A stretch of 64,000 nucleotides of DNA from a virus, in IMG/VR virus record IMGVR_UViG_3300037246_000452, positions 25,219-89,218 of that record. The stretch is one strand, 5' to 3'. Both the position numbers and the translations under genes were made by a program. The notes under the pieces were generated by a model that ran no database searches, was not told where the DNA came from, and saw only the letters and a list, made by a program, of their open reading frames with translations. Shown one piece after another: positions 31,851 through 41,247 of this stretch (position 1 is its first letter; every line of letters begins with the position of its first letter).

Positions 31851-33965
31851 TCAATCCAGAAATAACATATCATCGGTATTTTCCATAACTTCTTGAAAAT
31901 TCATTAAATTAAAATCCCAGTTTATATTGAATCCACCTACCTCACCATTCCTACCTTTGAGAATGTTTACTTTTCTCTGCATTTTGGTTGCGATGCTCTC
32001 CTCCTCCAATAGACCTAGAACTATAGTGCTGAGCTGACCAATAGCATCTGAATACCCAATATCCTCAAGTCCTATATCCTCTCCTTTACTTGCCTTCATT
32101 TTCTTGGCTGCGTCCCTGTTAAACTGGTAGCTGCAGATTGTCGGGATTCCAAGATCGGTTGCCAATGCTTGCTTTATAAGTTCCGCATTCTCATCAATCC
32201 TTGCAAACTTATTCATTCTCTTATCTGGGTGCTTTAGTAGGTATGCTCCATCGATGATAAGGGCTCCCGGTTTCAACTGTTTACATAGTGCCCAGATATC
32301 CTCAACTGTAGCTGTGAGGTTACCATCTACAATCCAGCAAGGGACTGGATGATCTTCCATCAGTTTCAAGCCATGAGTCATCTGCTTATACCCTGCTGTA
32401 GACAAGGCTGCTTGTTTGATATGAGTTAATGGTTTATGGGTATGCATTGCCGCCACTCGTTGTATCAAGGGTAAGGGCGTCATTTCCATTGAGACCAGAA
32501 GCGTTGGGCGTTTCATCTTACTCCATATGTAATGCATAATGAATAAGAGAAGAAATGTCTTTCCTGAATTGTGTGTAACAAATCCTTCAGCTATAAAGTT
32601 ATTGTAAGGGTCGGCACATACTAAGTCATAAGTATCTTCCATCCCAAATAATTCAATACTTATTATTTTCTCTGCATGTACCAAATTCTGTCCGAAACGA
32701 CTTCTAGTCCCCTCATACCCCATCCCTGCACCGTGCTCTTTACCATGCTCTGAGTTTGTCAATAATCCTAAATTCGATACAGCATTGTTATTAGTATCCT
32801 CATCTTTATGATGTATATGCAACGAGCTTTCAGAGAATACAAAACCGTGATTTGGGTTCGTTTTCAATTGCTGAATAAAGTCTTGGAGGTTAACTCCATT
32901 TAGGGCTGCGTCATAATTAGCTCGCTGCTCTAGTACTCTATGGTATACACACCCATTTATAACTCTGGTGGGATAAGGGGCGTAGGGCATCTTTGTACAA
33001 ATCTCTTTTCTGTAGCGTCCAGTTTGTTTATAACCTTTTCCAGTATCAGGAGCTTTACATATTACCTCGTCGCCTACTACTAAATCTCCCAAAGGCCTAA
33101 AACCATTAGGTGTCATAAACATGTGGTCTGTGGTTGCCCTTACTACTTTTCCCGATTCCGTAGTAACAGTGTATGTCTCCTTCTTTCCAGAGTACACAAT
33201 ATCTTCGACTATGTTAAGCCCTGTCAAGTCGTCGTCCATCAAAGATTGTACTCTCGTGGGGATACTTAAATCCCACTTTCTAGCACCCCTTCCTTGTTTA
33301 GCGGTTTTTCCATGCATTCCTCGGTATACCTCTTTGAGGGTGTAATACCTCCCACTACCTTTTGATTTTCTGGAGATATAAAGTTTTGTATCACCGGATA
33401 AACAAGCCGGCCGGCCCACGATAGATATAACGTCTCCCGGCATTAAACCCCCGGTCATCTTGTCGAGGTAATCCCATCCGGTATTGATTCCGTAGTCGTC
33501 CCCAAACTTCATCTTTTCTTTATATTCTTTGGTGATAATATCACAAGCATGCCTAAAGTCTACCAGTTGAGTACCGTACTTCTTAACTGTGAGGCCTGTT
33601 AGTATCCCTGTAAGCATTTCAATGGCTTGGCCAGGGTTCATGTTCTCTTTGGTCAAGAACATCTTTGCTTCGTCGAATCCTTGCTTCAAGGCATTATGAA
33701 AATATCTATCCTTTACCTTGTCGGCATAGAATGAGGCCGGTTCAATGGCCTTTGGCAATATAAGGTCTTCAAACTGATTTTCTACTGTGGCCATCTTTGG
33801 GATAGTACCGTGATCATGGATGAAGTTCTTTATATAACCATGCAACTCCAACTCTGTGGGGCGCAGATAATCTGTATCTATACAAAGCTTGACGAATGAT
33901 TCAACATCACCTTCCTTGATAATGGATGAAATTAATTGCAATCCTATCGAACTCTTCTTAATCAT
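31851..33965 (-). CDS. dnaB: DnaB-type replicative helicase interrupted by an intein
   Basis: Hexameric 5'-3' helicase that drives the replication fork. The precursor is 704 residues; removal of residues 188-466 leaves about 425. The flanks join as GRPA-SGKT, restoring the P-loop; Walker B lies in PGALIIDGAYL, and downstream segments (LGIPTICSYQFNRDA, DAIGQLSTIVLGL) match DnaB. The N-terminal domain is short. ATG 33965 is followed at residue 8 by LQLISS, encoded by a copy of the dispersed palindrome. The helicase lies after a possible loader gene and ahead of primase. Confidence 0.9.
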   Translation of the reverse strand: MIKKSSIGLQLISSIIKEGDVESFVKLCIDTDYLRPTELELHGYIKNFIHDHGTIPKMATVENQFEDLILPKAIEPASFYADKVKDRYFHNALKQGFDEAKMFLTKENMNPGQAIEMLTGILTGLTVKKYGTQLVDFRHACDIITKEYKEKMKFGDDYGINTGWDYLDKMTGGLMPGDVISIVGRPACLSGDTKLYISRKSKGSGRYYTLKEVYRGMHGKTAKQGRGARKWDLSIPTRVQSLMDDDLTGLNIVEDIVYSGKKETYTVTTESGKVVRATTDHMFMTPNGFRPLGDLVVGDEVICKAPDTGKGYKQTGRYRKEICTKMPYAPYPTRVINGCVYHRVLEQRANYDAALNGVNLQDFIQQLKTNPNHGFVFSESSLHIHHKDEDTNNNAVSNLGLLTNSEHGKEHGAGMGYEGTRSRFGQNLVHAEKIISIELFGMEDTYDLVCADPYNNFIAEGFVTHNSGKTFLLLFIMHYIWSKMKRPTLLVSMEMTPLPLIQRVAAMHTHKPLTHIKQAALSTAGYKQMTHGLKLMEDHPVPCWIVDGNLTATVEDIWALCKQLKPGALIIDGAYLLKHPDKRMNKFARIDENAELIKQALATDLGIPTICSYQFNRDAAKKMKASKGEDIGLEDIGYSDAIGQLSTIVLGLLEEESIATKMQRKVNILKGRNGEVGGFNINWDFNLMNFQEVMENTDDMLFLD
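32568..33404 (-). mobile_element. Intein with HNH homing domain in the helicase P-loop
   Basis: A 279-residue protein-splicing element. It begins with Cys1 in CLSGDTKLY (block A), has ATTDHMF (block B) with the TxxH residues, an HNH insert (LHIHHKDEDTNNNAVSNL ... SEHGKEH), and ends DLVCADPYNNFIAEGFVTHN with Ser as the +1 residue (block F/G, His-Asn). All residues needed for splicing seem present. The homing domain is HNH, not the more usual LAGLIDADG type. Confidence 0.92.
33927..33940. repeat. Dispersed 14-bp palindrome, copy 15
   Basis: TGAAATTAATTGCA, inside the fifth to twelfth codons region of the helicase gene. Confidence 0.75.
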
Positions 33966-35556: not shown

Positions 35557-35657
35557 ATAACCCCCCATACCCATATACCTAAGTTAATGATTAGTATCCA
35601 TGATACTCCTAAAATGACAGTGATACATGCGGCTATTACTGTATTATTCCAATTCAT
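35553..35657 (-). CDS. Small membrane protein, 34 aa
   Basis: ATG 35657 overlaps the initiator gene stop as ATGA, with AAGGAGGG in place. Nearly all of MNWNNTVIAACITVILGV and the following IIN..IWVWGVI is one hydrophobic helix. Paired with the 47-aa membrane protein gene it overlaps. Confidence 0.5.
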   Translation of the reverse strand: MNWNNTVIAACITVILGVSWILIINLGIWVWGVI

Positions 35658-36619
35658 ACTTTACCCTCCTTCTCTAATTGTTCAAGTTCTTCCAGTGTCA
35701 TAGGTTTATGCTCTTTCAGTTCCACCACCTTTGGCTTCTCCTTCTTTGGTTGTGCAGTTAATTGCAAACCAGTCTTCTTTCCTGCCTCAGTCAAGGCATC
35801 TACATTTTGCTTCATCCATGCTATTGCCAGTTCAGTGTTTGAAAGCAGGAATCCGAGGATAGGTTTATCGGGGGGAGTCTTCATCCCTAGACTGTCCTTA
35901 CAGTGCATATGGAAGTCTATCCACCGGGGGATAATATACTCCACCATAGGTAAAACATCATTCCCTCCTTTTCGTATCATGTCTTTAAAGTTCCGGGTAT
36001 CTTTCATTGTAAAAGTCAGATACTCAACTCCCTGTGTTTCAATCATCAGCTGCCGGTAAGTTTCCTTTACCTGATTTAGAGGTGACATCTTCTTTACCTG
36101 CTCCTCTTTATTCTTCTTGAATTGCTCTATCATAGAACTTGCTCCGCCCTTCGTATACTTCATAAACTCCTCCGCTATTTCTTTTTTTGTTTTACTAGAA
36201 AGGAGGTCGCCTTCTCTATAAGCCTTCTCTACTAGCCTTATAAGCCTTTGGGTGGCAGTGTGCAACATATCCATTGCATAGTGCGACTCCTCTAAGGCAG
36301 TGTGCAACATATCCGTCTCACTGTGCAACATACTAATAGTCTCACTCTGCGACTTATATGATGCACCCTGCAACTGCTCAGTATCAAGAGAATACGTTAC
36401 ACTTTTAGATTTTCCAGATACCGTAACCCATCCATTCTTCTTAAGACTTGTGAGTGCTCTGAACACCGTGGACCTATCCATACCCATGAACTTTGCTATA
36501 GTGTCTACAGAAGGCCATGCCTTGCCTTCCTCATTAGCATAAGTGGCCAGTACCTGTAGCACCATCTTCTCCGTACCTTTCAAGTCTGAATCTAATACCA
36601 GCTTGTTCCACTTAAACAT
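35654..36619 (-). CDS. Replication initiator-like HTH protein carrying iterons in its gene
   Basis: Residues 12-65 (LKGTEKMVLQVLATYAN, then PSVDTIAKFMGMDRSTVFRALTSLKKNGWV) form the HTH_36-type winged helix found at the N-terminus of phage replication proteins such as lambda O-like and DnaD-like initiators. Residues about 85-130 repeat the heptad MLHSETD / MLHTALE, encoded by an array of 21-bp repeats. The C-terminal part (about 170-290) is helical and may recruit the helicase. ATG 36619 follows AAAAAGGAAAAT. A structured leader and tRNA-like RNA lie directly upstream. Confidence 0.68.
   Translation of the reverse strand: MFKWNKLVLDSDLKGTEKMVLQVLATYANEEGKAWPSVDTIAKFMGMDRSTVFRALTSLKKNGWVTVSGKSKSVTYSLDTEQLQGASYKSQSETISMLHSETDMLHTALEESHYAMDMLHTATQRLIRLVEKAYREGDLLSSKTKKEIAEEFMKYTKGGASSMIEQFKKNKEEQVKKMSPLNQVKETYRQLMIETQGVEYLTFTMKDTRNFKDMIRKGGNDVLPMVEYIIPRWIDFHMHCKDSLGMKTPPDKPILGFLLSNTELAIAWMKQNVDALTEAGKKTGLQLTAQPKKEKPKVVELKEHKPMTLEELEQLEKEGKV
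35753..35766. repeat. Dispersed 14-bp palindrome, copy 16
   Basis: TGCAGTTAATTGCA, inside the C-terminal coding part of the initiator gene. Confidence 0.8.
36261..36374 (-). repeat. Six iteron-like repeats, possible replication origin
   Basis: Plus-strand TGCAAC or TGCGAC starts at 36261, 36282, 36303, 36324, 36348 and 36369: spacings 21, 21, 21, 24, 21 bp, two helical turns each. Three units extend to GTGTGCAACATAT-like sequence. The array is inside the initiator gene, the arrangement known from lambda O. Confidence 0.7.
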
Positions 36620-36646: not shown

Positions 36647-36750
36647 CTTTAATAGACACAGGATACAGCTTTAGTCGCTACAACATAATGCCAGAGGACT
36701 ATCCCCTGTGGTGTTCTGTTAGTCACCTATATATCCTATGCCTATTAAAA
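36647..36750 (-). ncRNA. Structured leader RNA with a long closing stem
   Basis: Minus-strand TTTAATAGGCATAGGATA (from 36749) pairs with the segment at 36666-36648 over about 18 bp with two G-U pairs. Inside are GGTG/CACC and CAGGGGA/TCCTCTG stems. It lies in the 5' leader of the initiator gene, so control of initiator synthesis is possible. I do not recognise a known riboswitch. Confidence 0.5.
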
Positions 36751-36753
36751 AGA

Positions 36754-36893
36754 TGATCGGGGCAGGATTCGATACCTGCAAGGTACTAAACGTGTACTTA
36801 GCCTTTCCCTACTTCACCCTAACCTCGTAATGATTAACCGCCGTAGCTGTTAAACCCTCATAGTAGTGATGCGTTACCTTACGCTACCCGATC
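36754..36893 (-). ncRNA. tRNA-like RNA, about 140 nt, with expanded anticodon region
   Basis: 5' GATCGGG pairs perfectly with 3' CCCGATC. It is followed by TA, a D-arm-like hairpin (GCGT, loop AAGGTA, ACGC) and A, and the 3' side has a T-arm GCAGG / CCTGC with loop TATCGAAT (8 nt instead of 7) directly next to the acceptor strand. Between the arms are 90 nt in place of the usual 20-40: TCACT can pair with GGTGA around a long insert, and AAGGCTAA...TTAG.CCTT makes a variable-arm-like hairpin. No CCA is encoded. It may be an intron- or insert-bearing tRNA, a tRNA remnant, or a tRNA mimic. Confidence 0.5.
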
Positions 36894-36909
36894 ATATTAA
36901 ATTTAACTC

Positions 36910-37680
36910 CTACTGCTCAGTAGGTTTCTTCTCATCCTTCTCAGTCTGGGCCTTATGCTCATCACTGGGAGTAGCCGTAACCTCTTCATTTTCTGCATCA
37001 AGCAATACCGCATCACTTGCACCGTCTGCCGTTTGCTCCACAGTAACGGTAGTGTCTTCTGCTAGGGCAAGTTGAGAATCTTCCATGCCACCGGGAACCT
37101 CTTTAGCGAAGTGGAGCGTTTCCAGCATCTTTGTGTAATCCGTACTGTAGTTGCCTTCCTCAATCTCTACATTGCCAAAGTACTGCTCAAGGATTGTGAG
37201 GTACCTTTCTATAGAGTAGTCCTTGAGGAGCTGTTTACGGTACTGGCAGCATTGCGCTTCGTCAATCATGGCAGAGCTTAAGGCCACCACTGTCTCTGCA
37301 AAGGGGCCATCCTGCAGTGCTCTCATCAATACCTTTACACCTTCTTGGCCCCCCGGTATCTTCATAAAGCTTTCTATACCAAAGAAGCATGAGCCTCTTC
37401 TTCTGACGTTATCAAGCTTGGCAAACTTAATGTCAGGAAATACCTCTTTGATAAGGGCTACAACATCCTGTACATCATTATCCTTCTCAGGAGCAAACCT
37501 AACCCTTGAACCAATCATTATGCTGGCTCCATCAACCTCAAGTACAGGCTTATAGCCAACCCTGAGACCTCCCTTCTTTCCGAGCACTAGATAGTCAAGG
37601 TTTCCCTCTGTGCCTATCATGAGCTCGAAATCACTGATGTCTATCTTTTTCGTTCCTTCTTGCAACTGCTTATCATCCAT
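36910..37680 (-). CDS. Hypothetical partner of the AAA+ ATPase, 256 aa
   Basis: Acidic protein with a mixed alpha/beta N-terminal two thirds (LDYLVLGKKGGLRVGYKPVLE, FFGIESFMKIPGG) and a low-complexity Glu/Thr/Ala C-terminal tail (residues about 205-256). It follows the AAA+ gene by 1 nt, so the two are probably made together and may form a complex. No family is recognised. Confidence 0.5.
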   Translation of the reverse strand: MDDKQLQEGTKKIDISDFELMIGTEGNLDYLVLGKKGGLRVGYKPVLEVDGASIMIGSRVRFAPEKDNDVQDVVALIKEVFPDIKFAKLDNVRRRGSCFFGIESFMKIPGGQEGVKVLMRALQDGPFAETVVALSSAMIDEAQCCQYRKQLLKDYSIERYLTILEQYFGNVEIEEGNYSTDYTKMLETLHFAKEVPGGMEDSQLALAEDTTVTVEQTADGASDAVLLDAENEEVTATPSDEHKAQTEKDEKKPTEQ

Positions 37681-40761: not shown

Positions 40762-41247
40762 TTAAATAATATTTAATCTTGCAAATTCCCCATAATACTT
40801 AATAGCCAAAGTGTTATATGCTACAGCGGCCTCTAGTGCAGTCTCATGATACCCGCCTCGTACTTTTTTACCTTCCTTTGTCAGTGTCGCTCTCCAAGGT
40901 TTTGCTCTAGTCTGATCTTTGCAAAGCTCTATCCCCTTATACCCTGTGGTGTTATTCTTGTACTTCTTTTTATTATACAAATTTTGAGCTAAAGTACATA
41001 GGCGTAGATTTGATCTTCTGTTGTCTAGCCCGTTACCGTTTATATGATCTACTACCTCTCCTTTAATCGCGCCTGTAATAACCCTGTGCATTAGTAATAT
41101 TTCACCATGCTCCATTCGTCTAGCGTAACTAAGATCACTCTGAGCTGTGTATCCAGACCATTTAACCAAGCCTATCTTAGTAAAATCAATGGCGTCTATT
41201 AGGTATATCCCTCCGTTTTGTAATTGTAGCCTTCTTGTAACTCCCAT
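40762..41247 (-). CDS. HNH-AP2 homing endonuclease
   Basis: HNH part: MHRVITGAIKGEVVDHINGNGLDNR, here in pieces, with LRLCTLAQNLYNKK; AP2 DNA-binding part: TGYKGIELCKDQ, WRATLTKEGKKVRGGY, EAAVAYNTLAIKYYGEFARLN. This two-domain layout is typical of free-standing phage homing nucleases. The 161-residue gene stands alone between a terminator upstream and a promoter downstream, in keeping with insertion at a transcription-unit boundary. An extended -10 (TGGTATTAT, about 41277-41269) may drive it. Confidence 0.85.
   Translation of the reverse strand: MGVTRRLQLQNGGIYLIDAIDFTKIGLVKWSGYTAQSDLSYARRMEHGEILLMHRVITGAIKGEVVDHINGNGLDNRRSNLRLCTLAQNLYNKKKYKNNTTGYKGIELCKDQTRAKPWRATLTKEGKKVRGGYHETALEAAVAYNTLAIKYYGEFARLNII

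What the first reader, a model, noticed from the sequence alone, without database searches (positions are those of the whole stretch)
36754..36893. 140-nt tRNA-like RNA with an intact acceptor, D- and T-arm but a 90-nt middle
The outer parts follow tRNA rules (7-bp acceptor, TA at positions 8-9, 4-bp D stem with GG in the loop, 5-bp T stem joined to the acceptor), but the T loop has 8 nt and the anticodon-variable part is far too long. TCACT/GGTGA could close an arm around a 45-nt insert. It could be a tRNA with an unusual intron, a decayed tRNA, or a mimic that binds host tRNA enzymes.
Basis: partly seen in the sequence, partly recalled or inferred. Interest (0 to 1): 0.72.

Follow-up and report, generated by a model that had tools for sequence, protein, structure and literature searches.

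The report
Phage tRNA-shaped RNA without anticodon
A phage gene is predicted to make an RNA that keeps the outer frame of a transfer RNA but has no anticodon; it belongs to a widespread, unannotated class of phage RNAs in which that frame stays fixed while the part in the middle is swapped freely, like a natural carrier for other RNAs.

Summary
Default ARAGORN and Rfam miss it; ARAGORN with introns finds only this in the window. It is not an isolated oddity. The same T loop led to 81 distinct relatives, almost all in phage contigs, plus Phapecoctavirus, a Lactobacillus phage and a cyanophage; no Rfam family names them. Acceptor stems covary through all four Watson-Crick types, 73 of 81 D loops lack GG, and none has a normal anticodon arm. 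Close phages with nearly identical flanks keep the frame but carry unrelated middles. So it is neither an intron-bearing tRNA nor plain decay, but a tRNA-frame, non-decoding RNA of an apparently undescribed class. Most likely mechanism (inferred): the frame gives processing and stability, like the engineered tRNA scaffold, and displays an exchangeable middle. What the middle does is unknown; in the window it is not more structured than shuffled sequence, and this phage's distant relatives lack the RNA.

The parts
36754..36893 (-). whole tRNA-frame RNA, 140 nt including discriminator A; no encoded CCA (next bases TCT)
36887..36893 (-). acceptor stem 5' strand GATCGGG (pairs 7/7 with 36755-36761)
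36885..36886 (-). U8 A9
   Evidence: U8 in 75 of 81 relatives
36871..36884 (-). D arm GCGT-AAGGTA-ACGC, 6-nt loop (same AAGGTA as in Phapecoctavirus)
36780..36870 (-). 91-nt middle replacing anticodon arm and variable region; the exchangeable part in related RNAs
36834..36853 (-). hairpin inside the middle, UUAAC-A-GC[UACG]GC-G-GUUAA (predicted)
   Evidence: middle as a whole z = +1.65
36762..36779 (-). T arm GCAGG-TATCGAAT-CCTGC with 8-nt loop, the class signature
36755..36761 (-). acceptor stem 3' strand CCCGATC
36909..36924 (-). terminator-like hairpin at the end of the upstream gene
   Evidence: consensus match only
36692..36708 (-). terminator-like hairpin downstream, before the replication-initiator gene
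   Evidence: consensus match only
36910..37680 (-). upstream gene, 256 aa, no family match
35654..36619 (-). downstream gene, helix-turn-helix replication initiator

Best explanation
The element is a tRNA-derived, non-decoding RNA of a widespread and apparently undescribed phage class. Shown by sequence: the tRNA frame (acceptor, U8, D arm, T arm) is kept and covaries across the class, the anticodon arm is gone, the elbow is altered (8-nt T loop, usually no GG in the D loop), and the middle is exchangeable between close phages. Inferred: the transcript is read from the phage operon, host RNase P and 3' enzymes cut it out as they would a tRNA, the tRNA frame protects it from exonucleases, and the middle is a payload (binding site, decoy or antisense RNA) that is replaced rapidly under selection. 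In effect it is a natural tRNA scaffold. The altered elbow would keep the RNA out of translation or off some tRNA enzymes.
For: 93 of 131 viral T arms have acceptor plus D arm against 0-11 with shuffled acceptors. An independent D-arm probe found 28 of 38 with an acceptor and one of two altered T arms, 14 with 5 bp + 8-nt UAUCRAAY and 14 with 7 bp + 7-nt UGNRAGN; shuffled control 1 of 38. Covariation: acceptor pairs 1-6 in all four Watson-Crick types, T pair 49:65 as GC, AT, CG, TA and GU; between the related Phapecoctavirus and Faunus RNAs acceptor pair 4 changes C-G to T-A. No anticodon arm in 81 of 81. Exchange: L105 vs L186 upstream about 95-96% and downstream 99.6% identical, middle 49.6% against 48.8% shuffled. 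The same phage has two ordinary tRNAs with 7-nt T loops and CCA. The engineered tRNA scaffold uses the same design: acceptor, T and D arms kept, anticodon arm replaced by an insert (PMC3753655).
Against: No transcript data. The window's own middle is not more structured than shuffled sequence (z +1.65); the class mean is only -0.83. No close homologue of this particular RNA was found, and phages with the same gene order lack it, so covariation is at class level only. No antisense match of middles to their own contigs. Acceptor covariation is partly built in by searching for complementarity (controls given). The link between D loop and T loop is strong, not absolute (L187 at 1791 has a GG-less D loop with a 7-nt T loop). 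No conserved protein partner.
Confidence: 0.5

Rival explanations
1. tRNA mimic or decoy: the frame itself is the active part and occupies a host tRNA-binding enzyme (RNase P, CCA enzyme, modification enzyme, or a tRNA-cutting defence); the middle is filler.
For: Frame conserved and elbow altered in a constant way; middle not structured in the window; no linked protein needed.
Against: Acceptor sequence varies freely and CCA is encoded in only 8 of 81, so no single synthetase identity; filler does not explain why the middle can reach 150 nt, or is replaced wholesale in near-identical phages.
Confidence: 0.25
2. Cis-acting processing element: the tRNA shape marks a cut in a polycistronic phage mRNA (RNase P / RNase Z), separating the upstream gene from the replication initiator gene.
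For: Lies about 17 nt after one gene and about 134 nt before the next on the same strand; relatives usually lie between co-directional genes.
Against: No conserved neighbour gene across the class; some lie in tRNA clusters; does not explain the exchangeable middle.
Confidence: 0.12
3. Decayed tRNA gene.
For: This phage's relatives lack it; no CCA; window middle shows no structural signal.
Against: All 16 frame pairs intact; the same unusual T loop, U8 and G7-C66 in 81 sequences with covarying stems.
Confidence: 0.08
4. tRNA interrupted by an intron in the anticodon loop.
For: ARAGORN with introns calls tRNA-Phe(GAA) with a 47-nt intron.
Against: Anticodon stem has an A.G mismatch and the variable region would be 26 nt in a class I tRNA; 47 nt is too short for a self-splicing group I intron (general knowledge); short relatives have no anticodon loop and no room for an intron.
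Confidence: 0.03
5. YrlA-type Y RNA that tethers a Ro60 protein.
For: YrlA carries a tRNA-like domain (stated in PMC7790460).
Against: No TROVE/Ro60 domain in the phage record (record closed by a 127-bp terminal repeat); no Rfam match.
Confidence: 0.02

Closest known systems
T4 species 1 RNA (rnaC, 139 nt) and species 2 RNA (rnaD)
   Same: Phage-encoded small stable RNA of nearly the same length beside tRNA genes; rnaC has a tRNA-like T arm and ARAGORN with introns calls a tRNA-Leu-like shape in its 3' part. Function unknown (PMC3014915, PMC9697503).
   Different: rnaC has an ordinary 7-nt T loop TTCGAAT and its 5' end lies outside the tRNA-like part; no 8-nt loop.
Engineered tRNA scaffold (PMC3753655 and its predecessors)
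   Same: Acceptor, D and T arms kept, anticodon arm replaced by an insert; lets the insert accumulate in E. coli.
   Different: Man-made, with an ordinary tRNA elbow; the phage class is natural and mostly has an altered elbow.
YrlA (bacterial Y RNA)
   Same: Non-coding RNA that mimics tRNA.
   Different: Works with Ro60; none encoded here.
tmRNA
   Same: tRNA-like ends with a long middle.
   Different: ARAGORN finds no tmRNA; no conserved G3-U70 pair in the class; much shorter.
Phage tRNA-Leu
   Same: Most relatives have a tRNA-Leu-type D arm TGGCGGAA...TAGACGC.
   Different: G18G19 lost, T loop 8 nt, anticodon arm absent.

Membership tests
tRNA (decoding) | 7-bp acceptor, D arm, 5-bp T stem | tested here: met
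tRNA (decoding) | anticodon arm: 5-bp stem, 7-nt loop with U33 | tested here: not met
   none in the window RNA nor in 81 relatives; ARAGORN's forced reading has a mismatch
tRNA (decoding) | 7-nt T loop | tested here: not met
   8-nt TATCGAAT
tRNA (decoding) | match to the Rfam tRNA model | tested here: not met
   no tRNA match even at E = 10
phage tRNA-frame class (defined here) | 8-nt T loop TATCRAAY on a 5-bp stem | tested here: met
phage tRNA-frame class (defined here) | 7-bp acceptor joined to T arm, U8, G7-C66 | tested here: met
phage tRNA-frame class (defined here) | D arm, usually without GG in the loop | tested here: inconclusive
   D arm present, but loop AAGGTA keeps GG, as in Phapecoctavirus; 73 of 81 relatives lack GG
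YrlA Y RNA | Ro60 (TROVE) partner | tested here: not met
   on the whole phage record; a host-encoded Ro60 cannot be checked
tmRNA | G3-U70 alanine identity pair and tmRNA gene call | tested here: not met
   pair 3:70 is U-A here and varies freely in the class; ARAGORN -m finds none
T4 species 1 RNA | discrete stable transcript | not testable with these tools
   no expression data

The most novel reading that the evidence does not exclude
Phages across several families use a natural tRNA scaffold: a fixed tRNA-shaped frame with its own elbow (two discrete T-arm types) that carries a freely exchanged RNA cassette acting on host or rival-phage targets, evolving as fast as an arms-race gene.
Probability: 0.35. 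Interest if true: 0.92.

Novelty: new variant of a known kind. Interest (0 to 1): 0.77.

Why it matters
Standard tRNA finders discard these sequences, so a common phage RNA class appears to have gone unannotated, even in well-studied E. coli phages (in phAPEC8 it lies unannotated between tRNA-Asn and tRNA-Thr). It would show that phages use the tRNA frame as a carrier for non-decoding RNA, give a comparison for the orphan T4 species 1 RNA, and offer a laboratory system (Phapecoctavirus on E. coli) in which function can be tested. The elbow change is also a test case for what tRNA enzymes require of the D and T loops.

Tried and rejected
Intron-bearing tRNA, tmRNA, YrlA/Ro60 and plain decay (see rivals). 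Searching for the RNA in syntenic phages (RcZahn, RHph_TM16, DLP_5, KarBoss and about 20 IMG/VR loci): absent. Protein relatives of the 256-aa neighbour: none. A strict pattern from the window's own D and T arms: no hit. Antisense match of middles to own contigs: none beyond chance. Conserved neighbour protein: none in more than 4 loci. UNCG-capped hairpins in the middles: not enriched; GNRA 11 against 4.4 expected. Rfam on 29 class-bearing loci: only tRNA calls, one of them a 135-nt tRNA-like in L105. Literature: no paper found that describes such RNAs, or that holds the T-arm motif in a phage context among those listed; only open-licence papers are held and only half of the matches were listed.

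Full report
Observation. The window lies in an 89,218-bp IMG/VR record whose two ends repeat 127 bp exactly, the mark of a complete circular assembly. Its nearest named relatives by protein are phages of Rhodobacter, Rhizobium, Stenotrophomonas and Vibrio, at about 30-42% identity. The flagged element is on the minus strand, with the genes around it, about 17 nt after a 256-aa gene of unknown family and about 134 nt before a helix-turn-helix replication initiator. Its frame is GATCGGG-TA-[GCGT AAGGTA ACGC]-91 nt-[GCAGG TATCGAAT CCTGC]-CCCGATC-A. The minimum-energy fold of the whole RNA gives exactly this frame. All 16 frame pairs are Watson-Crick.

Chance. ARAGORN with introns at default stringency finds this site alone in the window and none in 30 simulated windows. 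A structural scan for acceptor, U8, D arm and T arm over the window and the loci fetched around the neighbouring ATPase found only this site, sites that ARAGORN also calls as tRNAs, and one weak hit. ARAGORN with introns gives occasional doubtful calls with long introns in other loci, so the combined frame scan is the better evidence. The tRNA-Phe reading itself fails: an A.G mismatch and a 26-nt variable region. The phage has two ordinary tRNAs elsewhere, Asp(GTC) and Pro(TGG), with 7-nt T loops and encoded CCA.

Relatives. A blastn search of the 156-nt region returned a 21-nt exact match, the odd T arm, in about 85 phage records, nearly all Phapecoctavirus or close kin. There it sits in an unannotated gap between tRNA-Asn and tRNA-Thr, in a second tRNA-frame RNA: GGACTTG-TA-...TTAAGGTAAA...-GCAGGTATCGAATCCTGC-CGAGTCC, with the same 6-nt D loop AAGGTA. 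ARAGORN misses it with and without introns. The Erwinia phage Faunus has a relative of this second RNA with a different T arm and an encoded CCA; relative to phAPEC8 its acceptor pair 4 is changed on both sides. Further members lie unannotated in Lactobacillus phage SAC12B (119 nt) and Synechococcus phage S-CAM9 (66 nt, a UUCG-looped hairpin in the place of the anticodon arm).

Class. In the viral loci 93 of 131 such T arms have a matching acceptor and D arm, against 0, 1, 3, 5 and 11 in five runs with shuffled acceptors. I kept 81 distinct sequences, 66 to 244 nt; a handful, mainly from the genome contigs and among the longest, may be chance. T loop TATCGAAT in 78; U8 in 75; G7-C66 in 68; no GG in the D loop in 73; NCCA in 8 where about 1 is expected; acceptor pairs 1 to 6 each show G-C, C-G, A-T and T-A. 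None has a normal anticodon arm.

Independent probe. Because the first probe fixed the T arm, I repeated the search with only the D arm TGGCGGAAGATAGACGCT. Of 38 distinct hits, 14 have the 5-bp stem with 8-nt UAUCRAAY loop, 14 have a second arrangement, a 7-bp stem with a 7-nt UGNRAGN loop, and 10 gave no clear acceptor by this rule; with shuffled acceptors 1 of 38 passed. No ordinary T arm appeared. In the held loci there are also 11 long tRNA-frame candidates with an ordinary elbow, some in the same contigs; L195 has one of each kind in tandem with the same acceptor. The coupling of D and T loop is not absolute (L187 and L192).

Exchange of the middle. L105, L144, L186 and L192 share their flanks and the frame but not the middle, which differs in length (52 to 136 nt) and is no more alike than shuffled sequence; L105 and L186 are 99.6% identical over 697 nt that begin inside the 3' frame. 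This is the strongest hint that the middle is a functional cassette under rapid turnover or recombination. No neighbour protein recurs widely, so any partner is probably from the host. Middles are slightly more structured than shuffles on average (mean z -0.83), but the window's own middle is not (z +1.65). They show no antisense match to their own contigs.

Interpretation. Shown: a tRNA-derived frame, no anticodon arm, class-level covariation, exchangeable middle. Inferred: transcription, tRNA-type processing and stabilisation, and a payload role for the middle. The engineered tRNA scaffold (PMC3753655) shows that this design works in E. coli when made by hand. I give about 0.9 to membership of a real, non-decoding phage RNA class and about 0.5 to the scaffold mechanism as stated.

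Known systems. T4 species 1 RNA is the nearest described phage RNA by size and setting, but has an ordinary T loop and no known role (PMC3014915, PMC9697503). YrlA and tmRNA were tested and not met. Rfam 15 has no family for these loci beyond ordinary tRNA. My literature search covers open-licence papers only, so a description elsewhere cannot be excluded.

Noticed in passing
window 31851-33965 (-): DnaB-type helicase gene interrupted by a putative intein: Pfam Intein_splicing at residues 246-466 and an HNH domain at 381-408, between two halves that align to uninterrupted phage helicases. L016 and L024 have similarly long helicase-position ORFs (762 and 747 aa).
   Followed up: partly
L292, L293, L295, L303, L305, L311, L314, L319, L320, L323, L324: Second type of tRNA-frame RNA: GG-less D arm with a 7-bp T stem and 7-nt loop UGNRAGN.
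   Followed up: partly
L105:605-739; L195:3712-3820; also L137, L143, L187, L191, L192, L204, L208, L324: Long tRNA-frame RNAs (101-150 nt) with an ordinary elbow and apparently no anticodon arm, sometimes next to an 8-nt-loop member; L187 has several in a row.
   Followed up: partly
L298:1034 and 6505 (+): Two nearly identical copies of a 107-nt tRNA-frame RNA about 5.5 kb apart in one contig.
   Followed up: no
L104, L118, L128, L148, L149, L190: Members in which the D loop itself seems to hold a large inserted hairpin (TGGCGGAAGCG...CGAAAAGTAGACGC).
   Followed up: no
L107, L136: ORF starting MGYMKINNLYKDQTILLFKECYAMEKIHGTSAHI near the RNA, looks like an RNA ligase (motif seen by eye).
   Followed up: no
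L096:601-623 (Rhizobium phage RHph_TM40 and relatives): The same 8-nt-loop T arm right after a tRNA-Leu gene, but without a clear acceptor partner.
   Followed up: partly
L088:1409-1547 (-), T4 rnaC: ARAGORN with introns reads the 3' part of T4 species 1 RNA as a tRNA-Leu-like shape of 95 nt.
   Followed up: no
window 40762-41247 (-): HNH endonuclease gene near the lysis genes.
   Followed up: no
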